A DNA stretch of 64,000 nt, taken from the IMG/VR virus record IMGVR_UViG_3300009183_000080, positions 1 through 64,000 of that record; one strand, written 5' to 3'. Numbering within the stretch: the first letter of the stretch is position 1; the number at the start of each line of letters is the position of its first letter. Positions 10,140 through 58,956 of this stretch are shown one piece after another. Origin of the DNA: a virus. Below the pieces are notes generated by a model. It was not told the origin of the DNA. It ran no database searches and saw only the letters and a program-made list of their open reading frames with translations. The translations under genes and the position numbers were made by a program.

Positions 10140-10647
10140 AACCAACTTTATTGATCTGTTCTGCAGAAGGAATCCATGTTTCAGAATTTTCTTGAACACC
10201 ATGACCTTCAACAATTCTATTAAAGAAATTAAAGGCAGAGCAAACTGCAACAGCATCTTTAACTTGTTCTTGTGTAAATCCAGCCTCATAACATTCATCA
10301 TATAATTTCTTAGTCATACTTGCTGGATGCTTAGTTAACTGTTCTACTAAATTAAAAATTGTAGTCAATCTATTTGGAGTTGATTGAATTCCCCCATCTA
10401 AAATCTCAATCTCAGCATTTATTGATTCTGCAAAAACACGGTGCGATCCATAACAAAATCTACATCCATTTAAGTATGATGTATATGCTGCAATAATTTC
10501 TCTATCTTGTGGAGACAATGACGAAGCCTCTCGCAATACTTCTTGTGCAAATGAAAGCATCATCATATATCTTTTTTGATTTTCCATAAAAACATCAATA
10601 ATTGTTGAATCTTCCTTAATTGAATCGAATACATTTTTTACACTCAT
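10123..10647 (-). CDS. AhpD-like / carboxymuconolactone decarboxylase family protein
   Basis: This 174-residue all-helical protein carries the AhpD-type redox site: E50 in DREIIAAYTSYLN, followed by CRFCYGSH with C62, C65 and H69. Proteins with this CxxC-H site act as alkylhydroperoxidases or thiol peroxidase partners and can detoxify peroxides. It overlaps the start of the halogenase gene by 17 nt, so both are made from one message. A plausible inference is that it handles peroxide or reactive halogen by-products of the halogenase, or recycles a thiol. A GAGGT ribosome-binding site precedes the ATG at the end of the primase gene. Confidence 0.8.
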   Translation of the reverse strand: MSVKNVFDSIKEDSTIIDVFMENQKRYMMMLSFAQEVLREASSLSPQDREIIAAYTSYLNGCRFCYGSHRVFAESINAEIEILDGGIQSTPNRLTTIFNLVEQLTKHPASMTKKLYDECYEAGFTQEQVKDAVAVCSAFNFFNRIVEGHGVQENSETWIPSAEQINKVGYDQRY

Positions 10648-21967: not shown

Positions 21968-22603
21968 TTAAACCTCTTCCAGCGATACCGTAATATCCCA
22001 AAGATCATGATTGCTTTGTCCACGCTTAGATACCGTATATGAAAAATCAGAAACATAAACCTGAACAATTTGGTTATATTGTTCTAAATGTGTATATGGT
22101 GCTGAGGTTCCATCTTGTGCATAGTTATTAAACTTGTCATAGGCTAGGAACATCCAAAATGGTCCCGTGTGGTTTTCATACCAGTCTAGCATTTCTACTC
22201 CGCCTGCACCCCCGTCAGCGGTATATTCAGGGGATTGTGTGGTTGCTCCAGTAGTGGCTCCAGTAGTGGCCCAGTTTGGTATAGAAAAATAAGATCTTGA
22301 TGGAAGGTTTTGCCAACTTACACTTAAAGTATTTTTATCAGCAATATGAAAAGACCTCATGTTGCCGTTTACCATTCTTTGTCTTTGTTCAATTCTTTGT
22401 GAATTAAATTGAAGAGGACTACGGTTGTGGTCTGATAGAATTAAAAATTGATTTAGATTAGTAGTTTCTGTAGTGTATGCTCCTATTTCAAATCCTTCTG
22501 GCACGTACATTCCGCTTTGTAAAGTTCCTGGATTTTCTGACCAAAGAATTCCTTGTGGTCTGGAATAGCGTTTTCTTCCACTCATATATGCTGCGGTAGC
22601 CAC
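21968..22603 (-). CDS. Distal tail-type minor tail protein (GTG start)
   Basis: This 211-residue protein directly follows the tape measure gene, the usual place of the distal tail (Dit-like) or minor tail protein. It contains an internal WATTGATTGATT repeat encoded by a short tandem DNA repeat. Its aromatic-rich centre (YENHTGPFWMFLAYDKF) and C-terminal beta strands (QIVQVYVSDFSYTVSKRG) fit a tail-tube cap fold. The start is GTG, sharing bases with the tape measure stop (TAGTG) and preceded by GAGGT. Confidence 0.7.
   Translation of the reverse strand: MATAAYMSGRKRYSRPQGILWSENPGTLQSGMYVPEGFEIGAYTTETTNLNQFLILSDHNRSPLQFNSQRIEQRQRMVNGNMRSFHIADKNTLSVSWQNLPSRSYFSIPNWATTGATTGATTQSPEYTADGGAGGVEMLDWYENHTGPFWMFLAYDKFNNYAQDGTSAPYTHLEQYNQIVQVYVSDFSYTVSKRGQSNHDLWDITVSLEEV
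22240..22275. repeat. Short tandem repeat in the distal tail gene
   Basis: A roughly 15-nt unit (ctccagtagtggc) is repeated in tandem and encodes the repeated TTGATTGATT residues of the distal tail protein. It is in frame and may vary in copy number between relatives. Confidence 0.6.
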
Positions 22604-28600: not shown

Positions 28601-31600
28601 GCAATACCCTCTTGAGTGTCAACCTTGTTAGTTGCTTTCATACTACTTGCAATATCTTTAATTTTTTGCTGTCCCGTTTCACTTTGAACATATGCTTGTC
28701 CAAAAGTTGTTTTACCAGGTTTAATTTGAAATTTGGAAAAACTATCTGCCCTTCTTCTATTCATTAATTCGGTGCCAGTAACCTTATTAGTAAAAATTGC
28801 TAACTCATTTAAAGATTTTGAACTAGCACCCATTGCTTGAGTTGTTTCCATTGTTTTTGCTGCTAATGCTTCATTTTTCTTTTTAAGATACATATACCCT
28901 GCTCCTACAAGTACTAGGGCTGCTGCTAACGCTCCTGCTTGAGTTTTCATTAATGGTGCAGCCATGCTCAATCCCATTGCAATCATTGAGCCTTCCATGT
29001 TTCCAGTCATTCCTAGTGCCATTGATGCGCCCATACCAGCAGCACCAATTCCTGGAGCAAATCTTGCTATTTTTGTAGGGTTTTTTACTGATCTAGAAGC
29101 AAACTGTCCAGCCTTTGAAGCCTTTAGTCTTTCCATTGCTGCTTTACGTCTTCCTGGAGTTTGTTTAGTACCGTCAAAATCTTCTGCATTATCGGAGCCA
29201 TATGACCCAAGACTAGAAATGTCTATAACTTCTTTTCCAGTAATTGGATCTATTATAGTATTAACATCGCCTTCACCACGTAAAACAAATCCGCCTTTAT
29301 TTAATCCTTGTAAAAATCCTTTATTTTCTTGTGTTGATTTTTTATTTACAACAAAAGATCCTTGATTGAGCATCATTGGAACTGTATCTTTATTGCCTGT
29401 TCCTGGAACTATTGTTCCATTAGAACGTCTTTCAATTTTTCCACCGGCATTTATATATTGTAATGCTGGACCAATTTGTTGTGCTAGTGCTCTATCTGCA
29501 ATAAATTCTCCTGGAGTTAATAATGCTGGTACCGTTTCTGGTTCTCCGTAACCTGGTGTTCCATTTTTTCTTCTTCTTTCTTTGACAAGAAAACCTCTTT
29601 GTTTTAAAACTCCAGTTAGCACACTTTTAACAAATGCATCTTCGGATCCTGGTTTAGATTGAGCCACGTTTATTAAAGTTTTAAATTCTTTCCGTTGTCT
29701 GGTAGTGGCATCAATCGATTCACGAAGCGGTTTATTTATTTTAGGATGTGGTGCTGCTTGTGATGATTCTGGCATCTTGCCATCACTTTTATTTCTTGGA
29801 CCTACTCCTACATCTGTAAGTGGTGCTAATCCAGAACCATCTGGATTTAATGTTCTACTCCACATAGCATCAACTTTAGGCAGAAAACTTCTTGAAACTC
29901 CTGCAGTAGTTGTTTGGCCTCTTGATGATGTCATAAAATTATCAAACATTTCGTTGTATACTGGTCCGCCTATTGGTTGTTTTTCAGAAATGGCTGCTGC
30001 AAACGCTACTCGTTGCCCCATACTAGTAGACCACGCTAATTTAGCCCTAGCACCAGTTGCTGTTCCGACAATTTGACGAATATCTGCTGATAATTGTTCT
30101 TTTGCAACCACAGCCATTCGGTATGCTTGTAATGCCTTAACTCTTTCAGTTGTTCCTGGAGTTGCATTTAGATATCGTTGTCTTGTTGTTTCTTCATGAT
30201 TTTCAAGTATGCCTTCTGTTCTTATAGCGTCTTCGTGGGTAAGTGGATATGGCTCTGGAAGATCAAGAAATGCCTTGCCTGCTGTTCTTGCGCTGTTATT
30301 GCTTTGAGTTAAATTATTATATCCTTGATCTCCAACCATTGTATATCCAGCACTTTTTCTCAAACCAATAAGGCTATCTCTTGCTGCTCCCATATTGCCT
30401 CGTGTGTGTACTGGGGGGTTATTTCCATGTGAATCTTCCCAATGTAACAAGGCAGTTCCAGCAACACCACCTGGTCTAATGTTTAACAGGTCTTGTTCTT
30501 CCGCCAGCAATCTAAGCCTAGTTCTTTCTTTATTTGCTGCAATTCTTGCTGCCTCCGCAGCCTTTTCTTCTTCAGTGCCTTTAAACCTTCTTACAAACCC
30601 ACCTTTATTAAATGTAGCAGCAGCATGAATTGGTTGGAATTTTGACCAATCAACGTTTGCTCCAGCCTTAAGTCTATCAATCATATTTTGATAAACAATT
30701 GTTTCTGTTGGATCTAAATCCCAAGATTTAATAAGTTTTTCTAGTCTTGGTATTGTTTCACTAATTTCTTTTTTTATTGCAGCATCATATTCTGTTGGAG
30801 ACATTTTTGCAGCAAGACTAGATGTTTCTTTTGCAAAAAATTGTTTTGCTCCGCCACCTTTTACACCACCAAGATTAACCATTGCTTGTTCTTCCATGCT
30901 TGGCATTACTTTGGCAAACTCTCTAAATCCAGAGGCTCTATCATGTACCCCAGCAGTTCCAACATCTGCAACAATATTTCCAGAAACGTTTGCCCTTTGT
31001 AAGTCTTTGTCTCCTCTTAGTGTTGACGCAACTAACTGTTTAACCATGTCCTTTTGTGAGAATTGTCCATCCATTGCTGCTATTCTAGGATCATAAGGGG
31101 ACTCAATAACAATAAATTTTCTTTCCCCTGTTGGGTCTGTTGGATCCATCATTGTTCTAATAGTTTGTTTTGGAGATACCATTTTGTGTGCGGCTCTTAC
31201 AATTTCTGTAGCACGAATTTCTGCTAGTGCAGTACCTTCATCCATAGTTGGTTTTACTACAACTAAATCTCCATTAGGTTTTCTGTATACCCCGCCAACT
31301 CCACGAGCAGGAAAACTAAATCCAGTGAATGGTTGATGTAATGTTCCAAAATCGGTTGGTGGCACGTCTCCATATTTTCCAGCCTTTACATTATCCGATA
31401 TCTTGTTTAGCGTTTGTCTAGACGTTGTTGCTTTTGCTGCTGAGGTTGGCATACCAATAAATCTTGCTGGTGGCTTTGGTTGTGCTGCTGCTACCTGAGC
31501 AGCAACTACTGCTTTAGCATGTTCTATTGATCCTACACGGAATTTTGGTAATGTTGGATCATATCTTGGTCCTCCCTTTACTTCCCCTGCCCAAGGATTT

Positions 31601-33777
31601 TGTATATTTTTAAACTTTCCAGTTCCTACACCACGTAAAACAAAACCACCTTTGTTTAACGCTGGTAATAATCCCCGATTTTCTTGTGTTGCTTTTTTAT
31701 TTACAACAAATTCTCCAGGAGTTAACATTGCTGGAACTGTGTCAGTGTTTCCACTTCCTGGAACAAGTCCTCCCTTATTAAATTTCTTTGGTGTAAAACC
31801 AGGTCTCATCATTCCTGGATTTACTCTAGCAAAATTGTTTGCTGCAACTACTCCTCTTTGATATGCTGCTGTTAATTGATTTGCAGCCTGTGTCTCTAAA
31901 AGAAAACTTTGTCTTAGTCTGGAATGTGCTTGATCTAATGAGGCTGCAACTGTTGTTGCTTCAATTTGTGCTGAAGTCATATATTGAGTTTGTTCGCCAA
32001 GAACTTTAGACTGGCCCCCAAGATTCATAAATCCTTTTCTTAAGGTAATAAATAATTTAATAATATTTGCTGCACCATTTGCAATTAAACCAAATGTCAT
32101 CAATAATGCAGGACCAATAAGACCAACAATACCAATAAATCTTACAATTCCGGCCTTTACTCCATCACTAAGCCCATTAAATTTTTCAAGTATTTTGCCA
32201 ATAAACTCTACTATTGGAGTAACAGCCTTTAAAAATTGTTCTCCAATTGGTGCTAATGTTACTTTAAGATCTTCCATTGTTTTTTTAAATTTTGTACCAG
32301 TTGCATTTTCTACTTTAGCAAGTTCTCGTTCAGATAAAATAGCAAGTTCTTCAATTGAGTTTGATGCTAAATTAAGAGTTCTGGATGCTTGAGTTCCATC
32401 TTTTGTAATATTTTGAAATAATGTTGAAAGTCTTGAAAACTGAAACTTGCCAAACAATTGTTCAATTGCTCTTGCTCTGTTTAGTGGATCAAGTGTGTCT
32501 AGTGCTTGTGCAAATTGAATAACGGTTGATTTAATATCTCCCTTGTTTGATTCAACTATGCCCTTAATATTAACTCCAAAATCTGCTAAAAATGCAGATG
32601 CTTTTTTGCTTGGATTAATTAATGATGCAAGGCCAGACTTTAATGCGTTGGCACCTTCTGAAGCATTAATGCCACCCTCTTTCATTGCAGTCATAAAGAA
32701 TGCAAGGTCTTCAACATCTCCACCAAGTTGTCTAATAACTGGGGCAGCCTTTGGAATTGCAATAGTTAAATCTTCAATATTTAAAACTGTTTGGTTTTCT
32801 ACAGCGTTAAGAAAATCAATCTTTCCTCTTAATTTATCTGCTTCTATTCCAAAAGCATTTGTTAATGATATTGTTGTTTCTAATGCCTGCTCTTGTTCAA
32901 CTCCTCCAAGAACTGCAAGTCTTGTTGCTTGTGCAACCTGTGCCATTAAGTCGGCACCCATTTTTCCTGTTGCTGCTGCGTCTGCTGCAATTTGCATAGT
33001 TTTTTCAACAGCAACTCCATATTTAGTAAACTGTTTTGCTAATAACTCAACTTCTTTTAATGCTCTAGAAGTTTCAGCGGAAGTTGTAAACATTTCACCA
33101 TAAACACGTTTAAATCTAATGGCTTGTTTTTCTAATGCCATAAATGTTTTGCTTGAAGAAACTGCCAACATACTAAGTGGAATTGTAAAACCAACCATAA
33201 GTTGACGACCAGCCCACTGTGTATTTTTACCAAAATTTAAAAGATTAGTTGATCCTTGTTTTAATAACTGATTTAATAATTGTTGTTTTTGTGCAGCCAA
33301 AGCAGTTTTAGTTGCAAGATTATTCATGTCTAATGTAAGAGGTCTTACGGCTATAGCCTTAATTGCACCATTTGCATCTCTACCCATTTTAATATATTGG
33401 GTTTGCATTGTTTTAACACGTTCTTCTGCTACCTTGCCAATTGTGTTAAACTCTGTTTTGAAAAGTTTTCCAAATGTTTTTGTTGCACCACCAGCATACC
33501 TAAAATATTCACGAGTTGAAAATTTGTTTTTTTCTAATGAGTCAGTGAAACTATCAGTAGAACTTTTTATTGTTGTAATGCTTGCTGCAAATTTTCCAGT
33601 TGCATTTACACTATTTATAAGATTGCTTGTTAAGTTGGCTTGAGCCCTTGCTGCTGCTTTATTGCTTGTTGCAATTGCGTTATTAAACTGAGAAAGTTGT
33701 GCTTGAAGTGATTTTAGTTGTGCAAGTGCTTGAGAGGCGTCAAGATTAACCTCAATATTGGATTGAACATCAGCCAC
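22603..33777 (-). CDS. Tape measure protein with embedded globular domains
   Basis: At 3724 residues this is by far the largest gene; it sits after the tail chaperones and before the distal tail gene. Residues about 205-540 form a TP901-type tape measure core, with hydrophobic segments near 545-580. Another hydrophobic stretch lies at about 1580-1635, and helical, coil-forming segments at about 2250-2680. Four or five glycine-rich linker blocks containing TVPAMLTPGEFVVNKKAT-like sequence (about 665-716, 1413-1503, 2740-2793, 3605-3653) bound globular segments. One (about 808-1046) looks kinase-like and another (about 3143-3296) ADP-ribosyltransferase-like. The protein sets tail length and passes into the cell with DNA. 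The start is GTG with GAGGTG 6 nt upstream. Confidence 0.92.
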   Translation of the reverse strand: MADVQSNIEVNLDASQALAQLKSLQAQLSQFNNAIATSNKAAARAQANLTSNLINSVNATGKFAASITTIKSSTDSFTDSLEKNKFSTREYFRYAGGATKTFGKLFKTEFNTIGKVAEERVKTMQTQYIKMGRDANGAIKAIAVRPLTLDMNNLATKTALAAQKQQLLNQLLKQGSTNLLNFGKNTQWAGRQLMVGFTIPLSMLAVSSSKTFMALEKQAIRFKRVYGEMFTTSAETSRALKEVELLAKQFTKYGVAVEKTMQIAADAAATGKMGADLMAQVAQATRLAVLGGVEQEQALETTISLTNAFGIEADKLRGKIDFLNAVENQTVLNIEDLTIAIPKAAPVIRQLGGDVEDLAFFMTAMKEGGINASEGANALKSGLASLINPSKKASAFLADFGVNIKGIVESNKGDIKSTVIQFAQALDTLDPLNRARAIEQLFGKFQFSRLSTLFQNITKDGTQASRTLNLASNSIEELAILSERELAKVENATGTKFKKTMEDLKVTLAPIGEQFLKAVTPIVEFIGKILEKFNGLSDGVKAGIVRFIGIVGLIGPALLMTFGLIANGAANIIKLFITLRKGFMNLGGQSKVLGEQTQYMTSAQIEATTVAASLDQAHSRLRQSFLLETQAANQLTAAYQRGVVAANNFARVNPGMMRPGFTPKKFNKGGLVPGSGNTDTVPAMLTPGEFVVNKKATQENRGLLPALNKGGFVLRGVGTGKFKNIQNPWAGEVKGGPRYDPTLPKFRVGSIEHAKAVVAAQVAAAQPKPPARFIGMPTSAAKATTSRQTLNKISDNVKAGKYGDVPPTDFGTLHQPFTGFSFPARGVGGVYRKPNGDLVVVKPTMDEGTALAEIRATEIVRAAHKMVSPKQTIRTMMDPTDPTGERKFIVIESPYDPRIAAMDGQFSQKDMVKQLVASTLRGDKDLQRANVSGNIVADVGTAGVHDRASGFREFAKVMPSMEEQAMVNLGGVKGGGAKQFFAKETSSLAAKMSPTEYDAAIKKEISETIPRLEKLIKSWDLDPTETIVYQNMIDRLKAGANVDWSKFQPIHAAATFNKGGFVRRFKGTEEEKAAEAARIAANKERTRLRLLAEEQDLLNIRPGGVAGTALLHWEDSHGNNPPVHTRGNMGAARDSLIGLRKSAGYTMVGDQGYNNLTQSNNSARTAGKAFLDLPEPYPLTHEDAIRTEGILENHEETTRQRYLNATPGTTERVKALQAYRMAVVAKEQLSADIRQIVGTATGARAKLAWSTSMGQRVAFAAAISEKQPIGGPVYNEMFDNFMTSSRGQTTTAGVSRSFLPKVDAMWSRTLNPDGSGLAPLTDVGVGPRNKSDGKMPESSQAAPHPKINKPLRESIDATTRQRKEFKTLINVAQSKPGSEDAFVKSVLTGVLKQRGFLVKERRRKNGTPGYGEPETVPALLTPGEFIADRALAQQIGPALQYINAGGKIERRSNGTIVPGTGNKDTVPMMLNQGSFVVNKKSTQENKGFLQGLNKGGFVLRGEGDVNTIIDPITGKEVIDISSLGSYGSDNAEDFDGTKQTPGRRKAAMERLKASKAGQFASRSVKNPTKIARFAPGIGAAGMGASMALGMTGNMEGSMIAMGLSMAAPLMKTQAGALAAALVLVGAGYMYLKKKNEALAAKTMETTQAMGASSKSLNELAIFTNKVTGTELMNRRRADSFSKFQIKPGKTTFGQAYVQSETGQQKIKDIASSMKATNKVDTQEGIASQLATSIASGTLTASQAQSIAAELGKQLNDYSFGISVNAKLISLMGPKGENALEDPIGVRVKLLDTAQNNIANSFANVKNAKLAKFGLFNGASIAKATGTAVGLQSIAIEQSQELLNSFDAQTQKLIEQLEIKKQFGKADELRDKREKQRLDLVEKDRQINEQVVKFFDDVETTSTKTATSLLRTSEKGAVAAYKGTAEQDIAGGAVEAIKGFEGISRKQQYAINLQLKGKNVSPTEIINLTNLFKGDQKGTEALLKVLVSSPTQGNEASQVASMFIDNSGNPLKEVQKTLVLKMTSGSSGDNQENIDFFKTLGKTGEVLDMQIVSNYIEKNPNGTAALKEIFKQIQKTKGKLKIGILAKIDGMSVDEINALSTQVDYFDKLPADQQKTFTITFLSAYRSYIEDPAAMGGYLASTGMSPQAIEKQLSTAQGKARAAEAMAAAPAKQVTELEQAMAKQVAAAKKQDEQKGRDSLLDDMLKKLKLFHDSTIKATGGFQELMKVMTATGKIPINFDGTINKLRTLGEGKISEDYLRFVENLTPEQLQDKELMDQMGIKTKKGKVTGIDTKKQQKFEAGLASSEVGQNYNNTVSALVEMERRTKAINTLRLQGFSEQEANNVVSTDAIALAITQSRISQEDLDTIKLKQKELTKANFINERFTKTAQMDAAESQSKQLQMAKAYIDIQEKMIENEYIKEKTKLNIQKGDNDYALEQISRREYDINESYDKQITALEEINSLREKENELTSRKMSIAEAFASGDMSAASSAMQEYRNAKIAQSARSRMEALQKAKENAIKGVTATGSDGKAYTREDFEKMNRTIDQRFIDMENEVRVKKIELDKLTEQTTKLTKDQIDAAISTINLAVEALGPEGAAKFLDNVFETLDGSAVGTKASVKELHEEFKLFVKTMDEARIAAAGFASGNIIPNSVARANAEATAALNAKIAASDGEQKIANQKASQGFAPGKTAEQRSEQLRKDAEEVNRLYKENAELVAAQKLIDQEQRRKDFLRGVGIPGFRSGGKINGPGTGTSDSIPALLSDGEYVVNARSVDKYGVGLFESLNAQKLAEGGYLGVKNLQPDGKFERSSIAKKVVGAAGTTAGAIGNFFKEGFQMAATSFIRPVLQNSIDGANAIPGMGPKLNVPDINVLGANLYKNEGYGLKERGSDALGIGLTMANPLKYLKLIPGVSTALSAIAKPFKAVESKIAAPFKKIINLPKSRKEEQARKTAEMFDNIKNNSNNSDIWGDLPSDVLDFSTYTPFAPKSRMQTIASTIAKPLTAPANFMSNVAKAFSNSWKYGETPETRWTGSFDNYGRNSLMAELASKSIGKLAQNLNPKLTIQNKNPEEFSTLQKYMQNNLEGRYTSDPLYKNIPKNILEKFVKKPATNFISKIATKKDDLLTLLNKPNLTQEIVDSMPGGLGGLLQLQRGVHRTSTPYTASPLSVYERHAKAISGEGTPPRAAYGPGNYFAANAKISKNQFEDFGEYAYKTALTPSAILKVLGSKGLATPKDIEKIAIKYNMPGAHVTSANSDANQPIIQALIKEGYLGYRHGDAFTNWMMGTMPGMGFKLDSKSMVADGIPKSVIKKSNSISSGLKKIFEPKQTAYAATKGMKLPDPKLTAGEKAAQKFEKDLRAEIAARYSTPETLKETLKKVADKKSIPAAKISMPLNKPKKNKTTGPNYYLYQGADDDISLYHQIYSAGPKSEEGTIKGVAAILHDPFDGSLLETIGNKGSIMESFDLMALALMDAARMSGTTKTGLNTGIVSSRTDYSQKIVDTLEAKGLGKVVDIHPRIKPSFVDEAGKKTPPGSRLGGNVWLENELRFLNKESKSYDILKSSTAIPDNVVKIAKQTLLDLLKYGFDKKRVDDAVKQYGKEMNITGYAMGGIVPRYMSSGGMAVGTDTVPAMLTPGEFVVNRKATQKFGPLLSAINSPTFETPSSSTPKYSNANVSNNAVSTNNSKTLYNYNLSVNVSNSNANPNDIARTVINQIRQIDNQRIRGL
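22820..22965 (-). repeat. Tape measure linker repeat, C-terminal copy
   Basis: This encodes MGGIVPRYMSSGGMAVGTD followed by TVPAMLTPGEFVVNRKATQK, the last copy of the linker that recurs in the tape measure protein. It lies just before the C-terminal tail. Confidence 0.75.
25400..25560 (-). repeat. Tape measure linker repeat, diverged copy
   Basis: This encodes RSGGKINGPGTGTSDSIPAL, then LSDGEYVVNARSVDKYG. It is the most diverged copy and precedes the C-terminal globular region. Confidence 0.7.
29270..29540 (-). repeat. Tape measure linker repeat, double copy
   Basis: Two copies lie back to back: TVPALLTPGEFIADRALAQQ, then IVPGTGNKDTVPMMLNQGSF with VVNKKSTQENKG. They separate the globular N-terminal insertions from the hydrophobic and helical middle of the protein. 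Confidence 0.75.
31630..31785 (-). repeat. Tape measure linker repeat, first copy
   Basis: This encodes NKGGLVPGSGNTDTVPAML, then TPGEFVVNKKATQENRG and LNKGGFVLRG. It marks the junction between the TP901-type core and the kinase-like segment. A short NKGGFVRR echo occurs again near 30600. Confidence 0.75.
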
Positions 33778-46676: not shown

Positions 46677-46685
46677 ATTTTATCA
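46677..46685 (-). promoter_or_regulatory. Extended -10 promoter (TGATAAAAT)
   Basis: TGATAAAAT lies 9 nt before the ATG of the LamG-like gene and overlaps the end of the oxygenase gene. No Shine-Dalgarno is present, so a leaderless or very short leader is likely. Confidence 0.4.
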
Positions 46686-47213
46686 TACAATGCGGGTAAA
46701 CCATCTTGGTAATGTGTATCTATTAGTTCCTGTGACAGTTTTTACTCCGTGAACAAAATCTGGTGTGTCTGGAAAACATACTAAATCTCCTGCCTCTGGT
46801 TTAATTATAATTTCTAACTCTGGAAAATAAATCTCACCGCCAGAATAATTATCATTTATGTATATAAGGCAAGCAATATCATTTGTTCTAGTGACATCAA
46901 AATGCTCATGCATAGATGCACCAACTTCAAATCTAGCAATATGATTTAAATTTGAAACATAATTTACAAATGGTCCAGGATAATTTTCTAATACAAAATC
47001 ATAAACTTTTTTTTGATACTCATTTAAAATTAAAAATTCTTCAGAAACATCTGATTTTGCAATACCAGAATGAAATGCTTTAAATTCTTTTTTTGTATTT
47101 CCAAATTCTGTAAACTCTGAATCAACGCTTAATGCAAAATTATATAGCATACTAGAAACTTCTTTTGGCATAAAAGTTTTTATATGCTTTATTTTAGATA
47201 AACGATCTTCCAT
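46683..47213 (-). CDS. 2-oxoglutarate/Fe(II) oxygenase (prolyl-4-hydroxylase-like)
   Basis: The 176-residue protein is a compact 2OG-Fe(II) dioxygenase. It has H104-x-D106 in MHEHFDVTRT, distal H155 in DFVHGVKTV, and R165 in TNRYTLPRWF for 2-oxoglutarate binding. The core strand CLIYINDNYSGGEIYFPEL is typical of the P4Hc family. Such proteins hydroxylate proteins or nucleobases. Its start abuts the stop of the ribonucleotide reductase gene upstream. No substrate is visible; a neighbouring structural protein is possible. Confidence 0.85.
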   Translation of the reverse strand: MEDRLSKIKHIKTFMPKEVSSMLYNFALSVDSEFTEFGNTKKEFKAFHSGIAKSDVSEEFLILNEYQKKVYDFVLENYPGPFVNYVSNLNHIARFEVGASMHEHFDVTRTNDIACLIYINDNYSGGEIYFPELEIIIKPEAGDLVCFPDTPDFVHGVKTVTGTNRYTLPRWFTRIV

Positions 47214-49243
47214 TAAGAAACCTTAATTTCGCAGTAGTCTGTTGTGCAATACATTTCTCCAACGGAATCAAGATTCTCAATACCGTCATAAATTGCATCA
47301 AAGTTAATGTGAGCAACCTTTCCGACATAAGCATCATACTCTTCTTTAGTAATTTGTGTGTATGGCTGTTGTGGATAAGTATGATTTCCCATTGGAAGGA
47401 ATGAAACTGCTTTTAATTGACCTTCGTACATGTGAAGTGCTGGAGCAATATGTTTTGTTTCTGTTTCTTTGTCAAAAGATAAAGTCACAGATACCCCATT
47501 GTCCGACCAATACTTCTGTGTTGTTGCAGCAAGACCAATTTTTTCAAACAAACTTACATCCTTCTCTGATCTTGGATGTCCAGAAGATACTGGGAAATAT
47601 ACTACTGTAGTATTTGCTGATACTAGATCGTCTTCAATTTTATACCCTGCTGCTTTAAATAAATGTAGCATTGGATCTGTATTTCCAAAACGAATTGCAC
47701 GTAAGAAGTATTCTCCACCAACAGACCAGTGAACTCCTGGAGATGCTCCAGAAAGTAATGAAACTGATCCTGAAGGTTTTACTGTAGTTACACGAATTGA
47801 TTCACGAACACATAGCCATTCTGAATACTGCTTGTCGTAGTGGCGAATCTTATTGTATCCTTCGTCCATCCACTCTCTGGTTGTTGGCATTCCATTGATA
47901 TCAGTAAATGATGCAATACCAGTTAATGATGTTCCAATTCTACGGTTTCTTTGCATAATACCGTTTGTAATTTGCCAATGTGTTGGAAGTAAAGTTACAG
48001 TTTTTCCATAAAGATATGCAAATTTCAAGGTACGCATAAAGTCTTCTTTGTCTGTATGACGATTTAAATGAACCTCAACTAATGTACATAGTTCATAAGA
48101 CTCTAGTGGTTGTTCTGCACAAGGATTGAAACCCATAACACGATAGTCTTTTCCATCTGCTGGATCTGCTAGTCTTCCATAATTTCTTGCAACATCAAGC
48201 CAAATAAAACCAGGCTCTCCATTATCTGCAATTAAATCCACATAATCTTCGTAGTGAGTTCCAACCTCAGCAGCAATAGAGTTATTGCTCATCCATGCCC
48301 ATCCTGGATTTTCTGAATCAAATGAGTTACGATCTGGAAATAGTTCTGAGTTTTTAAGATTAATAAAGTCTTTATCATTTGGATTTCCAAGAGCAAGTGT
48401 TGCAGATCTACGAACATTGCCAGAAACAACACAGGTTCCAATAAGGTTTACAATATCTACAATTGCTCTAGAGTCTAACTTCTCTCCTGCCCTAGAACCA
48501 ATTACTTTACGGATCATTGTATGTAGATCCATTAATGGTTTTGGACCGCTTGCAACCCCACCAAAGCCCTTAATTGGGGCTCCTAGAGGACGGATCAAGT
48601 CATAGTTAAATTCTTGAATTGATTGATTTGCTCTCAAAAATGAATTAAGCAAAAGTCTAACAGATTCTACCCATCCTTCACGAGTATCTGGGATTTCATA
48701 TACAGATGCTGGTTCTGTTGGTGCATAGATAGATAGATCTTTTTCTTGACCTACCGTGTCAAATCCAACTCCAATGCCAAGCATTAATGCGTCCATAACC
48801 CAAGCAAATAAGGATCCTGGATCGTTACGATCAATGTCTCTTGTTGAAACCATCGCACAATTTTGAAGAGATGCAGAGTTTTTTCTTTCCATTGTCATTG
48901 GGGTACCAAAAGCCCAAAGACCTCTTCCTGGTGGAGTCCATTTAAGATTAAACATGCGGTCATATGCTTCTTGTGCTGATTTCTGTGCTTTATAGTCATT
49001 CCAAGGCAGTCTGTTTTCTTTCGCATGATTCTTTTGCACTGAGTACATGCCTTCAATTACTCTTTTACAAACCTCATACCATCTTTCCTTAGTACCATCG
49101 TCTTTTACACGGGAATAAGTACGAACAAACGTAATCTCTCCTAATGAGTTTCCACCTGCATCTTTGAACCCAAATGGTGGCTCAATTTCAATATATTTGT
49201 TTACAAAATCATCAGAAAAACGAAAAGAAAATACGTCAGACAT
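47213..49243 (-). CDS. nrdJ: Class II (adenosylcobalamin-dependent) ribonucleoside-triphosphate reductase
   Basis: The 676-residue protein matches monomeric class II ribonucleotide reductases in length and motifs. It has SLQNCAMVSTRD with the N-terminal active Cys, GNVRRSATLALG, the catalytic FNPCAEQPLESYELC (about 368-382) and a C-terminal CTTDYC redox pair. It converts NTPs to dNTPs with coenzyme B12, independent of oxygen, to feed replication. AGGGG precedes the ATG, with a TGCTATAAT box upstream. No subunit partner is needed for class II. A B12-dependent enzyme implies the host supplies or salvages cobalamin. Confidence 0.93.
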   Translation of the reverse strand: MSDVFSFRFSDDFVNKYIEIEPPFGFKDAGGNSLGEITFVRTYSRVKDDGTKERWYEVCKRVIEGMYSVQKNHAKENRLPWNDYKAQKSAQEAYDRMFNLKWTPPGRGLWAFGTPMTMERKNSASLQNCAMVSTRDIDRNDPGSLFAWVMDALMLGIGVGFDTVGQEKDLSIYAPTEPASVYEIPDTREGWVESVRLLLNSFLRANQSIQEFNYDLIRPLGAPIKGFGGVASGPKPLMDLHTMIRKVIGSRAGEKLDSRAIVDIVNLIGTCVVSGNVRRSATLALGNPNDKDFINLKNSELFPDRNSFDSENPGWAWMSNNSIAAEVGTHYEDYVDLIADNGEPGFIWLDVARNYGRLADPADGKDYRVMGFNPCAEQPLESYELCTLVEVHLNRHTDKEDFMRTLKFAYLYGKTVTLLPTHWQITNGIMQRNRRIGTSLTGIASFTDINGMPTTREWMDEGYNKIRHYDKQYSEWLCVRESIRVTTVKPSGSVSLLSGASPGVHWSVGGEYFLRAIRFGNTDPMLHLFKAAGYKIEDDLVSANTTVVYFPVSSGHPRSEKDVSLFEKIGLAATTQKYWSDNGVSVTLSFDKETETKHIAPALHMYEGQLKAVSFLPMGNHTYPQQPYTQITKEEYDAYVGKVAHINFDAIYDGIENLDSVGEMYCTTDYCEIKVS

Positions 49244-49329: not shown

Positions 49330-50001
49330 TTATTTTTTATAAACTAAAGGTGTATAAAGTTTTTGTGTTTTATCATCAAAAGAATTTGCTGGCTGTATAC
49401 TATATCCTAAAGTTATTCTTTTTGAATTCTCTTTCCAATATCCTCTTTCATGCAAAAGTCCAGTTTCAGATAAAATGGCCCTATTGTTTTTATTAACATT
49501 TTGAAATAATTCCCCAGACTCTAATTTATAAATTGTTACAGATGGTTCTGCATTTATACAATAATATCCATGAAAATCTGGAATACCTCTTTCTTCATCA
49601 TCATGAAAAGTCATATCTTTATTAAATAATTCTTTAGGAGCAGTAATATTTTGAAAATCGTTTAAATCACAGTTAAACCAACCTTTAATTAAATAATTTT
49701 CTTTATTAAAATCAATATCATAATAGTCGCAAGCATTTTGTGTCATTTCTAACAAAGCATTATTTAAATTAATAATTTCTTTATAATCATATTTAAAAAG
49801 ATTATAAGAATTTGAAAAGATAGTCGTCATTCCTTTTTCATAATATTTTTGACCATCAGATTTTGATATTCCTTCAATTTCTCCATTAAGCATTTTTTGT
49901 TCTTCATTAAGTAAAAAATTATAAAAATCATCAAGATTATTATTTAAAAAAACTTCAAAAAACTTATGAGGTTGTTTATTTAATTGATTGCTGTTTAACA
50001 T
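49330..50001 (-). CDS. 2OG/Fe(II) oxygenase-like protein
   Basis: The 223-residue protein has a plausible 2OG-Fe(II) triad: H-x-D in MTFHDDEERG (about 132-134), a later His in LLHERGYW (about 184) and an Arg in RITLGYSIQP (about 197). The strand HGYYCINAEPSVTIYKLESG fits the beta-helix core. The N-terminal half is helical. I chose the ATG preceded by AAAGGAATAAA, just after the stop of the upstream gene; an in-frame upstream start would overlap it. Substrate unknown. It is the third oxygenase-type gene in the window. Confidence 0.6.
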   Translation of the reverse strand: MLNSNQLNKQPHKFFEVFLNNNLDDFYNFLLNEEQKMLNGEIEGISKSDGQKYYEKGMTTIFSNSYNLFKYDYKEIINLNNALLEMTQNACDYYDIDFNKENYLIKGWFNCDLNDFQNITAPKELFNKDMTFHDDEERGIPDFHGYYCINAEPSVTIYKLESGELFQNVNKNNRAILSETGLLHERGYWKENSKRITLGYSIQPANSFDDKTQKLYTPLVYKK

Positions 50002-50011
50002 TTTATTCCTT

Positions 50012-50728
50012 TCATTTATATGTTTTTCGATTCCAATACCATTTTTTATATCCACCAGTAAATCTACTTCTAACTTTACTTGTTTGTTCGTTTACTATTT
50101 TTATATCAAAATTTTTATTAAATTCTGCTACCCAATTGTCTCTTTTAAATGGAAAAACTTGTACCAATGGGGTACCCTGTTTAATAGTTCCCTTAAATCC
50201 TTTATCTATAAAAAAAGAAAATAAACCATCTGACATATAACCATCTGTATCAATAATTGCAGCAACGGCATGCATTGGCATATAGTCTTGATGTTGTGGT
50301 TCCATAAATAAAGAACTATATCCTTTTTCAGTTTCTACAACCCATCCAATATTAACTCTAAATATATGGTCTGCAAAAAAATCATAATTAAATGGATAGT
50401 GTGAAACTTGTTCTTTTGAATGAGACCCAATTAATGGGGTTTTTAATTTTTTATAATTGTCTGAAATTTTAAAAATTTTGTTATCTCCAGTTGTATCAAT
50501 TTCTATATCAACCGGACATAACAACAAATATCCTGTAGTAATAATGTCAAAAATTGCCTGACAATTTTTTATTGTTATTCCATCAATAAGGCTATTTTCT
50601 TGCACAATGTAACTTGGTTGATCCTTATACCATTGTGGTAAATTTTTTGACATAGGAATTGGTTGAGGAAAAGCATCAATCATTTTTGGATATCTATAAT
50701 TAAATGTTATTTTTTTTTCTGTTTCCAT
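50012..50728 (-). CDS. Conserved phage protein of unknown function (cyanophage-like family)
   Basis: The 238-residue protein has IPMSKNLPQWYKDQPSYIV near the start, IKNCQAIFDIITTGYLLLCP and VDIEID, then ETEKGYSSLFMEPQHQ, and a C-terminal IKQGTPLVQVFPFKRDNW. I recognise this set of motifs from conserved proteins of marine tailed phages whose function is unknown. It is not an oxygenase by motif. A TGATATAAT box lies 5 nt before the ATG. It lies directly upstream of an oxygenase-like gene. Confidence 0.6.
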   Translation of the reverse strand: METEKKITFNYRYPKMIDAFPQPIPMSKNLPQWYKDQPSYIVQENSLIDGITIKNCQAIFDIITTGYLLLCPVDIEIDTTGDNKIFKISDNYKKLKTPLIGSHSKEQVSHYPFNYDFFADHIFRVNIGWVVETEKGYSSLFMEPQHQDYMPMHAVAAIIDTDGYMSDGLFSFFIDKGFKGTIKQGTPLVQVFPFKRDNWVAEFNKNFDIKIVNEQTSKVRSRFTGGYKKWYWNRKTYK

Positions 50729-50733
50729 AACTA

Positions 50734-50742
50734 ATTATATCA
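50734..50742 (-). promoter_or_regulatory. Extended -10 promoter (TGATATAAT), near-leaderless
   Basis: TGATATAAT then TAGTT then ATG: a 5-nt spacer with no ribosome-binding site. It overlaps the stop of the upstream Hint protein gene. Confidence 0.55.
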
Positions 50743-52032
50743 GTAATCAGGACGGTCAAAGACTAACATGTTTTCAGTAAAAAAGTTGTCATATGGCTCA
50801 CAGTTAATAGATATTTTTTCCATTTCTACATTCACTTCTTCTACTGTTGTAACTGGTAGCCATGCTTGATGTTCATAATTATATACCTCGTAAGTTGTAT
50901 CAATATTAGGTGCCTGTATAAACTTAGTAATTCCGTCTTTTTTAACTAAAAGATAATGAGCAGGAGTATAAAGGTTTCCATTTATATGAATAAAGTTTTC
51001 AGCAGTTCCAGGGGTAACCGACACAACTGTTGTTTCTACAACAAGATCATTGTCTAATTGTATATCAGAAGAACTCCATTCTGTCCAATTTGTTGTTGCA
51101 TCTCCTCCCAAATTCATTGCATATACTGTATCTCCAACAACTAAATCTTCAATAAATTTTACTCCAGTTGGGGTCAAAACTTTTGTTTGGACTGCAAGTG
51201 AATCTCCCCAGACAGAAAATCCAAAAGAGTATGGCCAAAAACCAAATGGTGTAAAACCAAATACTCCACCAAACGACGGTGCAAAACCAAATACTCCACC
51301 AAATGGTGCAAAAGCAAACACTCCAAATGGTGCAAAACCAAATACTGCAAATGGTGCAAAACCAAATGGAGCAAAACTAAAACTTGTAAAACTTGCAGAT
51401 GCTGCAGATGTAGAAGAGTTGCCATTTGCATTTGTTGCATATACTGTATATGCCTGAGCCGTTCCAGCCTCTTGAGCAACGTTAGCAGAAAGGGTTGATC
51501 CTCCTACTGAACCTGTTTTGCTATCATTAGATGCCCAAGTATATCCTGTAATTGCACTTCCACCAGTTGCTGGTGCTACCCAAGTTACAATGTCTGTTGC
51601 TGTTTGTGAAACTGAAGTGATAGTTGGTGCTGCTGGAGTTGCTGGAACTGTTGTTACTGTTACTGAAGAAGAAGTTGTTCCACTTGCAGTTCCTGAAGCA
51701 TTTGTTCCCTGTACTGTAAATGTGTATGAAGTATTAGATGCTAATCCTTGAAAAGTATAGGAAGGAGTAGATGAGCCAGTATTAACTGTATAGGTTGAAG
51801 GAGTGGTAGTAATAGTATATCCAGTTGCTGCTGGAGATTCTGCTGGAAGTGTCCAAGTAAGGGATACTGATCCACCTGTGCCTGCTGCTGATGCTGCTGA
51901 AGTAGTATTAGCGGTAGCAAGATAAGGACGAGATGTTCCTACGTTTGTGCCACTTAAAGAAGTAACGTTATCTGGTTGCAAAAAGTTATCTTGTGCTGAA
52001 GACTTGATGCCTCTTTTTTTACTAACTGCCAT
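50740..52032 (-). CDS. Appendage protein: FN3 domains, FG-rich repeats and a C-terminal Hint-like domain
   Basis: This 430-residue protein has three parts. Residues about 35-215 are fibronectin type III-like modules (VSLTWTLPAESPAATGYTIT, then SNTSYTFTVQGTNASGT). Residues about 219-270 are a low-complexity run of FAPFG/FGFAPFGG-type repeats. Residues about 277-430 resemble a Hint (hedgehog/intein) domain: VQTKVLTPTGVKFIEDLVVG with DTVYA, then VVSVTPGTAENFIHINGNLY, TPAHYLLVKKDG, and a C-terminal FFTENMLVFDRPDY. A Ser lies where the usual Cys begins the Hint block, and the final HN of inteins is missing. Surface-exposed fibre role likely. Confidence 0.7.
   Translation of the reverse strand: MAVSKKRGIKSSAQDNFLQPDNVTSLSGTNVGTSRPYLATANTTSAASAAGTGGSVSLTWTLPAESPAATGYTITTTPSTYTVNTGSSTPSYTFQGLASNTSYTFTVQGTNASGTASGTTSSSVTVTTVPATPAAPTITSVSQTATDIVTWVAPATGGSAITGYTWASNDSKTGSVGGSTLSANVAQEAGTAQAYTVYATNANGNSSTSAASASFTSFSFAPFGFAPFAVFGFAPFGVFAFAPFGGVFGFAPSFGGVFGFTPFGFWPYSFGFSVWGDSLAVQTKVLTPTGVKFIEDLVVGDTVYAMNLGGDATTNWTEWSSSDIQLDNDLVVETTVVSVTPGTAENFIHINGNLYTPAHYLLVKKDGITKFIQAPNIDTTYEVYNYEHQAWLPVTTVEEVNVEMEKISINCEPYDNFFTENMLVFDRPDY
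51225..51380. repeat. Tandem repeat encoding FAPFG-type motifs
   Basis: Units of ggtgcaaaaccaaatactcc-like sequence recur about eight times and encode Phe/Gly/Pro repeats in the Hint-domain protein. The repeat is in frame with no stops. Confidence 0.75.
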
Positions 52033-52063: not shown

Positions 52064-54148
52064 CTATGCTGACAAATCTCCCATTACAACCCAAAGATTT
52101 GCTGCTCTCTTAAATAATGTCGCTGATGACCATTGTGCACGAAGTTTTAATCCAGGAGTTGCATTTACTGTTGTTGTTCCTGGTGTTACTGCTTCAATTG
52201 TCACAGCGCCAGTATTTGTTCGAAGAATGTCAATTGATGTTCCAATTGGAAAGTTAAAAGTAGCGTCTGTTGGAATTAAAACTTTGACTGCAGTTCCGCC
52301 TGTATGTGAAACTTCAATTAATGAGTCTCTTTCATTTGCTGCTGAAAGGGTGTATTCTGCTGTCTTCTGAATAATTGATGTCCGTGATGGAACACCTTCT
52401 TTTGTTTGTGTACCGTCGGTAAAAATAAATCCACCAGCAGTTGTACTAATAACTGAAGTTCCGTTTACTTTAAGATCTTTTCCTGAAGCAAGGTTGATAT
52501 GCTCGGAAGATGTCCAAGAATCTGTAGCATCTACCCAGTTAAAGGTTTTATCTGTTGCGCCTTTAAGTGTTATACCTCCGCCATCAGCAGTTGCATCTGA
52601 TGGAGTAGCAACATCACCAAGAACAATATTCTTATCATCAACAGAAAGTTCTGTTGAGTTGATAGTTGTGGTTGTTCCATTTACAATTAAGTTTCCAGAA
52701 AGTGTAAGGGCTGCTGCGTTTACCGTTCCAGTAAATGTTGGACTGGCAAGTGGTGACTTTGCATCTAACTGTGTTTGAATTGCTGAAGTGACTCCATCAA
52801 CATATCCAATTTCAGTAGAGGATACGGTTGAAGAGATACCAAGTTTGGTCCAGTCAATTGCTGCAGATGCGTTAATGTCAGCATTAACAATTGTTCCATC
52901 AAGAATTTTTGCAGAAGTAACTGCACCATCTGCTAAATCTCCAACAAGAATTGTTCCATCAAGAATCATTGCAGATGTAACAGTTCCTGAAGGAAGAGTT
53001 ACTGTTCCTGTAAATGTAGGAGAAGCAAGTGGTGCTTTTGCATCTAATTGAGTTTGAATGGCTGATGTTACTCCGTCAAGATATCCAATTTCAGTATTGT
53101 TAACACCTGCAACAACTGCTTGTTTATTATCTAATTGTGTTTGAATAGCAGAAGTTACTCCATCAAGATATCCAATTTCAGTGTTTGAAACGTTTGCAAC
53201 TATGGCTTGGTATGTATTAGATGCGGTTGTGGTATCTAGTTTTGCAGCAAGATCTGAAGTTAAACCTACAACTTTAGACTGTGCAATATTTGCTGTAGCA
53301 CTAATATCGTCATTAACAATAGTTCCATCAGCAATTTTTGCAGAAGTAACTGCACCATCTGCAATATCAGCAGTAGCAATTGTTCCATCTAGAATCATTG
53401 TAGAAGTAACAGTTCCTGAAGGAAGAGTTACTGTTCCTGTAAATGTAGGACTGTTTAATGGGGCCTTAAGCGCATCGGCAGTATCTACGTATACTTTTGA
53501 TGCGCCATCTGTATCTGCAGTAGGTACTGGCATATTAATAATTTTTGTAGCCAAGTTTAAATCAATATTTCCAGTCATTTGACCGCCTGCTTTTGATAGA
53601 CGTTCAGTAACATCTGAAACTAATGCTACTGTGCCTCCTGCGTTTGGAAAAAGAATTGCTCTATCTGCTGTAGGATCTATAACGCTAATTGTTGTTTCAT
53701 GTGCATCTGCTGTAGTGCCTTCAAAAACAATTCCTGTTGTAGCATTAATTGTTGTGCTGTTAATAGTAGTAGTTGTACCACTTACTGTTAAATCCCCTGA
53801 AATTGTGACAGCGCCAGTAGAGGAGTTGGCTAAAACAACTGTTCCTGATGCATCTGGAAGAGTGATGGTCCGATCTGCTGTAGGATCTGTTACTTCTAGG
53901 GTAGTTTCAAAAGCATTTGCTGTAGCACCTTCAAACTTAATGTTTGAACCAAATTGAGGGTTTACTGTGCTGTCTGAGTCAATAAAATAATCAAGGTTGA
54001 TCCAGTGGTTTGTGCCATCACCAATTTTAAACTTGTTGGTATCTGACTCGTAACCGATTTCTCCGGCTGCAAGGATTGGGCCGTTGCCACTGTTGGTTGA
54101 TATCCACTGGGCTGCAGTACCCCTTCTCTGTTGCATTCTTGTTGCCAT
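52064..54148 (-). CDS. Tail fibre protein, repetitive
   Basis: The 694-residue protein starts MATRMQQRRGTAAQWISTNS, with ILAAGEIGYESDTNKFKIGD. This N-terminal hyaluronidase/fibre module is common in phage tail fibres. The rest is repetitive: TFTGTVTLPSGTVTS, DGAVTSAKIADGTIVN and YLDGVTSAIQTQLD recur three or more times. A module with TINSTELSVDDKNIVLGD and KTFNWVDATDSWTSSEHINL is shared with a second fibre gene. AGGGGG precedes the ATG. It probably binds host surface glycans. Confidence 0.85.
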   Translation of the reverse strand: MATRMQQRRGTAAQWISTNSGNGPILAAGEIGYESDTNKFKIGDGTNHWINLDYFIDSDSTVNPQFGSNIKFEGATANAFETTLEVTDPTADRTITLPDASGTVVLANSSTGAVTISGDLTVSGTTTTINSTTINATTGIVFEGTTADAHETTISVIDPTADRAILFPNAGGTVALVSDVTERLSKAGGQMTGNIDLNLATKIINMPVPTADTDGASKVYVDTADALKAPLNSPTFTGTVTLPSGTVTSTMILDGTIATADIADGAVTSAKIADGTIVNDDISATANIAQSKVVGLTSDLAAKLDTTTASNTYQAIVANVSNTEIGYLDGVTSAIQTQLDNKQAVVAGVNNTEIGYLDGVTSAIQTQLDAKAPLASPTFTGTVTLPSGTVTSAMILDGTILVGDLADGAVTSAKILDGTIVNADINASAAIDWTKLGISSTVSSTEIGYVDGVTSAIQTQLDAKSPLASPTFTGTVNAAALTLSGNLIVNGTTTTINSTELSVDDKNIVLGDVATPSDATADGGGITLKGATDKTFNWVDATDSWTSSEHINLASGKDLKVNGTSVISTTAGGFIFTDGTQTKEGVPSRTSIIQKTAEYTLSAANERDSLIEVSHTGGTAVKVLIPTDATFNFPIGTSIDILRTNTGAVTIEAVTPGTTTVNATPGLKLRAQWSSATLFKRAANLWVVMGDLSA

Positions 54149-57832: not shown

Positions 57833-58372
57833 ATGACAACTAATAAGATAGTGATTGGTGTACTCGCAGCAGTAACTGGAATTGCAATATTTTCTAATTC
57901 TAGCGCTAATGCTGAAAATAATCTGAGTAGTACCGTGTTAAAAGAAGAAACAGCAACCGCTCAGGCGGTTTTTTTGGTTTCTAAGGAAAACAAATTAAAT
58001 AGTTATAAAAATGTTAGAAAACAACTAAGTCCAACACAACTAGTAGAACTTTTAGAATCAGTTGGTTTTGAAGGGTATGCACTAAAAGTTGCTTGGGCAA
58101 CAGTAATGAAAGAATCAATGGGAACCCCAACATCCTTTAATGGTAATCGTAGTACAGGAGATAATTCATATGGACTATTTCAAATCAATATGCTAGGATC
58201 AATGGGCGCAGATCGACGGGATAAGTTTAACCTTGATTCCAATGATGATCTATTCGATCCCGTTAAAAATGCACAGATTGGCTACCATATGAGTGATGGT
58301 GGTAAAGACTGGTCTGCCTGGAAGGGTATTACCTGGAAGACCAAAGAGTGGCTAGCAAGATATCCTGATTAA
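57833..58372 (+). CDS. Secreted lysozyme-like lytic transglycosylase
   Basis: This 179-residue protein is the only complete plus-strand gene. Residues 1-27 form a signal peptide with a hydrophobic core (IVIGVLAAVTGIAIF) and an ANA cleavage site. The mature part has a lysozyme/SLT-type domain: KVAWATVMKESMG with catalytic-type E94, then NRSTGDNSYGLFQINM (about 105-120), NAQIGYHMSDGGKDWSAWKG. It would cut peptidoglycan outside the membrane, for lysis or entry, or to alter the host wall. AAGGAGG precedes the ATG. It meets the minus-strand oxygenase gene tail to tail, sharing 4 nt (stops overlap). Confidence 0.8.
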   Translation: MTTNKIVIGVLAAVTGIAIFSNSSANAENNLSSTVLKEETATAQAVFLVSKENKLNSYKNVRKQLSPTQLVELLESVGFEGYALKVAWATVMKESMGTPTSFNGNRSTGDNSYGLFQINMLGSMGADRRDKFNLDSNDDLFDPVKNAQIGYHMSDGGKDWSAWKGITWKTKEWLARYPD

Positions 58373-58956
58373 TAAACAAAACTAACAATTGCATATCTAA
58401 CACCACCTGTTATTGGCAAAACTTTATGCTGATAAACATAACTTGATGGGAAAAGAAATAGTTGATTAGCCTTTGGCCTAATCGTTAAATTAAACTTGGA
58501 AAATTCTATTTCTCCTCCTTCGTAATCGTCATTGCAATAATAAATTAAAGACATCCTTCTTGGTGTTTCAATATGATCATCTAAATGAGTATTAAAATAT
58601 TGACCCTTTCTATATTTTAAAACTAGATAAGGTTCATGGGTTTTTGTTTCTAGATGAAACATTTCCTTGTAGTATTCTTCATATGGCGTGAACAAATTTT
58701 TTAACTTATTTGAAGTTTCAAGTAAAAATAAATCATTTTGATCTGATTCAAATGGAATGCTAATAGAAAAAACATTTCTTGTAGACAGGTCAATAACCTT
58801 TTCTCCATAAGAGTTGTGGGTTCCACCAAATCCCCAATTAAGATTTCTTTTTTTTGTTTCTAACTCTAACTCTTCTATAAAATTTTTTGAATCTAGGAAA
58901 ACATCATCATAAATAAAAAATCCTGGAATTGGTTCTGTATAATTAGATAATGTCAT
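58369..58956 (-). CDS. 2-oxoglutarate/Fe(II) oxygenase (P4H-like)
   Basis: The 195-residue protein has H124-x-D126 in FNTHLDDHIE, H177 in VYQHKVLPI and R187 in GGVRYAIVSF, the full 2OG-Fe(II) set. The core RMSLIYYCNDDYEGGEIEFS closely resembles the corresponding strand of the 176-residue oxygenase downstream of the reductase. It lies among appendage genes, so hydroxylation of a fibre protein is a testable guess, particularly as a collagen-like protein is encoded nearby. Its stop overlaps that of the convergent lysozyme-like gene. Confidence 0.85.
   Translation of the reverse strand: MTLSNYTEPIPGFFIYDDVFLDSKNFIEELELETKKRNLNWGFGGTHNSYGEKVIDLSTRNVFSISIPFESDQNDLFLLETSNKLKNLFTPYEEYYKEMFHLETKTHEPYLVLKYRKGQYFNTHLDDHIETPRRMSLIYYCNDDYEGGEIEFSKFNLTIRPKANQLFLFPSSYVYQHKVLPITGGVRYAIVSFVY

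What the first reader, a model, noticed from the sequence alone, without database searches (positions are those of the whole stretch)
50740..52032. FN3, FG-rich repeat and Hint-like domain fused in one phage protein
Two FN3-type modules are followed by about eight Phe/Gly/Pro repeats (FAPFG type), then a Hint-like domain with TKVLTPTGVKFIEDLVVGD and TPAHYLLVKKDG. The Hint part has Ser at the entry position and lacks the terminal HN, so it may not splice but could still do N-terminal acyl shift, cross-linking or self-cleavage. The repeats could self-associate.
Basis: partly seen in the sequence, partly recalled or inferred. Interest (0 to 1): 0.7.

Follow-up and report, generated by a model that had tools for sequence, protein, structure and literature searches.

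The report
Phage tail-region protein with Hint cap
This is an uncultured tailed phage's tail-region protein made of two fibronectin-like domains, a floppy phenylalanine-rich arm and an intein-like domain that seems to have kept only the self-cutting half of its chemistry, a design shared by a family of phages that swap the arm but keep the cap.

Summary
Two FN3 domains are real (Pfam E 3.6e-11), residues 218-275 are a disordered Phe-rich arm, and residues 278-426 form a confident Hint fold (pLDDT 85.7; VIA Z up to 18.5 to bacterial intein-like domains, inteins and Hedgehog). Ser278 sits at the intein/Hedgehog entry position. In 83 distinct relatives (median 42% identity over the Hint) the entry Ser and the block-B His are invariant (83 of 83; 10 of 149 columns are invariant) and a C-terminal His-Asn pair is never present (0 of 83). 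Distant cultured-phage relatives (Alexandravirus, Alcaligenes phage) keep Cys1 and His-Asn behind collagen-like repeats. N-terminal modules (FN3, PASTA) and arms (FGA, FAPF, FFPP, FSHYAG, PT, VGSP) swap; the Hint cap stays. Best explanation: the cap keeps the N-to-O acyl shift and so cleaves off, or transfers, the arm; no activity was shown. A side lead: Pro-rich arms tend to lie next to prolyl-hydroxylase-like 2OG oxygenases, strong in raw counts but not significant after tree correction. New variant of a known kind.

The parts
50740..52032 (-). whole gene, 430 aa (P0001)
51649..51972 (-). FN3 domain 1, about residues 21-128
   Evidence: Pfam fn3 best stretch 51-120; confident beta domain in the model; the domain limits are my reading
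51385..51648 (-). FN3-like domain 2, about residues 129-216
   Evidence: second fn3 stretch; strands 137-201 in the model
51202..51384 (-). disordered Phe-rich arm, about residues 217-277
   Evidence: pLDDT <50 for 218-275; F composition
50755..51201 (-). Hint domain, residues 278-426
51199..51201 (-). Ser278, entry (block A:1) residue
   Evidence: model residue 11 begins the alignments to residue 1 of many inteins and residue 258 of Hedgehog 1at0; Ser in 83 of 83
50956..50958 (-). His359, block B:10
   Evidence: His in 83 of 83, 85 of 85 with outgroups
50776..50811 (-). signature S-I-N-C-E-P-Y-D-N-F-F-T, residues 408-419 (block F), with Cys411
50755..50760 (-). Phe425-Asp426 in place of the intein His-Asn (block G)
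   Evidence: HN in 0 of 83; model 159 aligns to residue 440, the last one, of the Mtu RecA intein 2in0
52064..54148 (-). upstream neighbour: Mtd_N-type tail fibre gene
   Evidence: Pfam Mtd_N 1.3e-11; order kept in relatives
50012..50728 (-). downstream neighbour: phrog_7084 family, unknown function
   Evidence: E 6e-37; near the Hint gene in most relatives
46683..47213 (-). 2OG-Fe(II) oxygenase, nearest solved relatives prolyl hydroxylases
   Evidence: PF13640 E 3.6e-11

Best explanation
It is a modular phage tail-region protein: N-terminal binding or spacer domains (FN3), a disordered arm, and a C-terminal Hint cap that is a reduced autoprocessing domain. Proposed mechanism (inferred): block-B His359 and the fold strain the Asp277-Ser278 peptide bond, Ser278 attacks it (N-to-O acyl shift), and the resulting ester is broken by water (the arm is released) or by a nucleophile of another protein or glycan (the arm is transferred and covalently anchored). 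With no His-Asn and only four residues after the Hint, splicing is not expected. Shown: fold (by model), position and conservation of Ser278 and His359, loss of block G, and place in the tail-fibre module. Inferred: that the shift happens, and what the acceptor is.
For: Hint fold with the entry Ser aligned to residue 1 of inteins and C258 of Hedgehog. S278 and H359 are among only 10 invariant columns of 149 in 83 distinct relatives at median 42% identity. B:7 keeps Ser/Thr in 78 of 83; PMC4031507 (passages) names Cys1/Ser1 as the step-1 nucleophile and Thr B:7 and His B:10 as assisting residues. Purifying selection: NG86 dN/dS 0.06-0.36 in six Hint comparisons. Outgroups keep Cys1, TxxH-type block B and His-Asn: Alcaligenes phage and 13 of 13 Erwinia/Dickeya-type loci, so the ancestor plausibly was an active Hint. 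[quoted passage not shown] Tail context.
Against: No activity data. Block F:4, most commonly Asp, is Ser/Thr/Ala here (72/8/3 of 83), which could mean a dead or slow active site. The most conserved part (408-419, median 100% identity to the window against 37% for 278-407) is not the entry site, so the main selected function may be binding. The -1 residue is not conserved. The 83 sequences are not 83 independent lineages.
Confidence: 0.5

Rival explanations
1. The Hint fold is kept only as a structural plug: a catalytically dead domain whose conserved C-terminal face (INCEPYDNFFT) docks the arm to a tail or baseplate partner.
For: Residues 408-419 are far more conserved than the rest, and the pattern holds in 32 of 32 complete loci found without using that region. 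F:4 Asp, F:13 His and block G His-Asn are lost.
Against: It gives no reason for an invariant entry Ser and block-B His, or for Ser/Thr at B:7.
Confidence: 0.33
2. The nucleophile has moved to block F: Cys411 attacks the junction, as Cys F:4 does in class 3 inteins, with Ser278 an accessory or relay.
For: Cys411 in 83 of 83 where entry is Ser; Val or Ile there in the outgroup members read, where entry is Cys.
Against: Cys411 is at F:7, three residues from F:4, and on a strand would point to the other side (inference); class 3 inteins lack Ser/Cys at position 1 (PMC7664689 passages), whereas here Ser is invariant. No coordinates could be measured.
Confidence: 0.1
3. It is an intein or remnant of a spliced intein inserted in a tail gene.
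For: Fold, and weak Intein_splicing Pfam hits.
Against: In the proteins read the domain is C-terminal, with only 3-28 residues after it and no His-Asn.
Confidence: 0.02

Closest known systems
Type B bacterial intein-like (BIL) domains
   Same: Hint fold (best Foldseek and VIA matches include the BIL structures 2lwy, 6y75, 6tmm), entry nucleophile kept, block G lost, sits in variable modular proteins
   Different: Ser at entry, F:7 Cys and the INCEPYDNFFT signature, C-terminal end position in phage tail-module proteins; membership by sequence clustering not tested; the structures matched are not stated to be type B
Alexandravirus (Erwinia/Dickeya) virion structural protein, PHROG 38766, and Alcaligenes phage Afa-NA1 putative tail protein
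   Same: C-terminal Hint after a repeat arm; all 25 aligned Hint domains hit phrog_38766, best E 3.2e-10
   Different: Cys1, His-Asn, collagen-like Gly-X-Y arm and a further domain before the Hint; about 22-27% identity
Hedgehog C-terminal (Hog-Hint) domain
   Same: C-terminal Hint using only the first acyl shift; Z 17.2
   Different: no sterol-recognition region; Ser not Cys
Uncultured Caudovirales proteins in BFVD named 'Fibronectin type III', 'PASTA_pknB domain containing protein', 'Hint domain containing protein' (A0A6J5NYB8, A0A6J5NY54, A0A6J7WKC1)
   Same: same fold and, by name, the same kind of modules
   Different: names only; their sequences were not read here
Class 3 inteins
   Same: Hint fold; a block-F Cys
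   Different: Cys at F:7 not F:4; Ser1 present; no splicing end

Membership tests
HINT superfamily | Hint fold | tested here: met
   predicted model
HINT superfamily | block A entry Cys/Ser and block B [T/S]xxH | tested here: met
   S278 83/83, H359 83/83, B:7 S/T 78/83
HINT superfamily | score above a curated Pfam Hint/Intein cut-off (a convention of the library, not a property of the superfamily) | tested here: inconclusive
   the window Hint hits only Hint_2 at 14.3 bits, cut-off 28.4; hits in relatives are below cut-off too
Intein | C-terminal His-Asn and +1 Cys/Ser/Thr with a C-extein | tested here: not met
   HN 0/83; mostly 3-9 residues after the domain
Type B BIL | intein motifs present except block G | tested here: inconclusive
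   blocks A and B present, G lost, but F:4 and F:13 are altered too
Type B BIL | N-terminal autocleavage | not testable with these tools
   needs expression
Hedgehog Hog domain | sterol-recognition region after Hint | tested here: not met
   the protein ends 4 residues after D426 in the window
Class 3 intein | Cys at F:4 and no Ser/Cys1 (WCT motif) | tested here: not met
   F:4 is S/T/A and Ser1 is invariant
FN3 | Pfam fn3 above cut-off | tested here: met
   43.5 bits against 25
FG-nucleoporin-like self-associating repeat | phase separation or gel formation | not testable with these tools
   only disorder and Phe content shown

The most novel reading that the evidence does not exclude
A phage covalent-anchoring device: an extendable, sequence-swappable aromatic or proline-rich arm whose C-terminus is activated as an ester by a Ser-type Hint cap and joined to a virion or host-surface nucleophile, the Pro-rich versions being hydroxylated by prolyl-hydroxylase-like oxygenases encoded next door.
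Probability: 0.12. Interest if true: 0.85.

Novelty: new variant of a known kind. Interest (0 to 1): 0.55.

Why it matters
If the cap is active, phages use Hint chemistry in virion assembly or attachment, and a compact Ser-type Hint that lacks block G is a possible tool for C-terminal cleavage or ester ligation. If it is dead, it is a clean case of a Hint fold reused as a structural dock. The neighbouring prolyl-hydroxylase-like genes make phage protein hydroxylation directly testable.

Tried and rejected
Tried without result: single-protein Pfam did not see the Hint; genome contigs held no relative; tblastn with two other Hint types found no cultured phage at E<=0.1. An N-terminal-only diverse alignment had no stretch conserved enough to scan with, so a closer set was used. 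Atomic distances (Ser278-His359-Cys411) could not be measured, since no coordinates are given.

Considered and weakened: class 3 mechanism through Cys411 (position F:7, Ser1 present). Ascertainment: most loci were found with C-terminal patterns; the control scan without them (34 loci) gave 32 complete C-termini, all with the signature and none with HN. One of its two patterns holds the block-B His, neither holds Ser278.

Prolyl hydroxylation: of 77 rows (82 distinct, 5 dropped for short downstream DNA or short linker) 24 of 29 Pro-rich (P>=0.20 of the last 60 residues) and 6 of 48 others have a 2OG gene within 2.5 kb downstream, Fisher 7e-10; at P>=0.15, 28 of 38 and 2 of 39. Tree-independent pairs: 7 on supported branches, the second trait going the same way in 3.2 on average, the other way in 0.1, not differing in 3.8; median p 0.25, so not significant. 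FGA-type phages also carry 4-6 such genes, elsewhere in the record. Nearest solved structures being prolyl hydroxylases is expected for PF13640 in general.

Papers: searches are search listings; passages read in PMC3556154, PMC5259590, PMC7765530, PMC4031507, PMC7664689. No paper in these listings is recognisably about this protein family, by title and abstract start; the searches for fibronectin type III + Hint domain + phage and hedgehog intein + bacteriophage + virion + tail found none.

Full report
What is there. The reading frame 50740-52032 is on the minus strand and encodes 430 aa. The record is a 71,432-base virus record of which the window is the first 64,000 bases. It carries a portal protein, head maturation protease, a 3,724-aa tape-measure-like protein, DNA polymerase, primase, helicase and class II ribonucleotide reductase. 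Its portal is nearest to Streptomyces phages, 46% identity, which hints at an actinobacterial host; that is inference.

Domains. Pfam finds two FN3 stretches, E 3.6e-11. The full-length model (20 aligned sequences) has confident beta domains up to residue about 210, a disordered stretch 218-275 (pLDDT about 30) and the C-terminal domain. The arm holds 20 Phe in 62 residues; all Phe codons of the gene are TTT; F-x-P-F(-G) occurs five times. The Hint model (25 sequences) has pLDDT 85.7. Best PDB matches are the C. thermocellum BIL domain 2lwy (E 7.6e-8) and the Tetrahymena BIL2 domain 6y75/6tmm (VIA Z 18.5, rmsd 2.0, 139 aligned); inteins and Hedgehog 1at0 (Z 17.2) follow. For many inteins the aligned range begins with model residue 11 at residue 1 (for 1at0 at residue 258), so Ser278 is the entry residue; for Mtu RecA (2in0) it ends with model 159 at residue 440, so Asp426 is in the place of the terminal Asn (ranges give first and last aligned residues only).

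Family. Six viral-contig scans gave relatives; searches kept the best 80 of 181, 211 and 168. A profile search of the 254 stretches held after one search gave 254 hits and 87 distinct tails; 85 covered the domain, and the two left out are Dickeya/Erwinia. Of the 85, 83 are window-type and 2 are cultured-phage outgroups. In the 83: entry Ser 83, block-B His 83, Cys411 83, B:7 Ser/Thr 78 (Val 5), F:4 Ser 72, Thr 8, Ala 3, F:13 Asp 81, Asn 2, G:7 Asp 71, Glu 7, Asn 4, Gly 1, and His-Asn 0. Ten of 149 columns are invariant; median identity to the window over the Hint is 42%. Block-F numbering rests on the gap-free match to the outgroups, whose Asp F:4, and in the Alcaligenes phage His F:13, are the residues that PMC4031507 calls most common there (passages). 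C-terminal conservation is not only ascertainment: 32 of 32 complete loci found without that region have it.

Outgroups. Erwinia/Dickeya Alexandravirus and an Alcaligenes phage carry a Hint at the same C-terminal place behind a collagen-like arm. All 13 viral loci of that type have Cys at entry, THEH, Val at F:7 and His-Asn-Thr followed by a short tail. The Alcaligenes copy has Cys, His-Asn and Met at +1. So Ser1 with Cys F:7, and Cys1 with Val/Ile F:7, are two states of one family. Window-type proteins vary in N-terminal modules (FN3 or PASTA) and in arms (FGA, FAPF, FFPP, FSHYAG, PT, VGSP, VVVNDP). The Hint cap is common to all of them, necessarily so since it was the search query; that it lies at the C-terminus was not a search condition.

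Place. In relatives the order Mtd-type tail fibre, Hint gene, phrog_7084 gene, (2OG oxygenases), class II RNR recurs; some records hold two Hint genes (L023/L033, L019/L025, L089/L090).

How it probably works. The residues needed for the first step of Hint chemistry are kept and those for the C-terminal step are lost, as in type B BIL domains (PMC4031507 and PMC7765530, passages). I therefore favour an N-to-O acyl shift at Asp277-Ser278 followed by hydrolysis or transfer of the arm (0.5). The main rival is a catalytically dead dock (0.33), because the strongest conservation lies in block F and F:4 Asp is lost. No chemistry was tested.

Side lead. Phages with Pro-rich arms often carry 2OG-Fe(II) oxygenase genes directly downstream (24 of 29 against 6 of 48; Fisher 7e-10) and not upstream: among 29 loci with room on both sides, 20 such genes lie within 5 kb downstream (15 in 6 loci with P>=0.2, 4 in 7 loci with P 0.1-0.2, 1 in 16 loci below 0.1) and none upstream. 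The tree-corrected test has 7 pairs, the informative ones nearly always in the same direction, but is not significant. FGA-type phages have such genes elsewhere. In the window two PF13640 genes flank the tail-fibre block (46698-46943 and 58372-58623). This is a lead, not a result.

Noticed in passing
L016, L018, L020, L022, L024, L026, L073, L074, L078, L088 downstream of the Hint gene: Clusters of 4-5 prolyl-hydroxylase-like 2OG-Fe(II) oxygenase genes within 5 kb of Hint genes with FFPP-type arms.
   Followed up: partly
window 50012-50728 (-): phrog_7084 gene of unknown function beside the Hint gene in most relatives, twice in FSHYAG-arm phages; relatives in haloarchaeal tailed viruses and Synechococcus phages.
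   Followed up: partly
window 49330-50055 (-): Protein without a convincing Pfam hit that looks by eye like a 2OG oxygenase (HxD...H pattern, my reading); relatives next to many Hint genes.
   Followed up: no
window 22603-33777 (-): 3,724-aa tape-measure-like protein, which would suggest a very long tail.
   Followed up: no
window 8676-10301 (-): Tryptophan-halogenase-like gene in a phage (phrog_2928, E 2.7e-94).
   Followed up: no
window 47213-49243 (-): Class II ribonucleotide reductase gene lying inside the structural gene block, also in relatives.
   Followed up: no
L089 and L090 (same record, 79,103 bases): Two Hint genes in one phage: an FGA-arm copy without an adjacent 2OG gene and a PT-arm copy with one.
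   Followed up: partly
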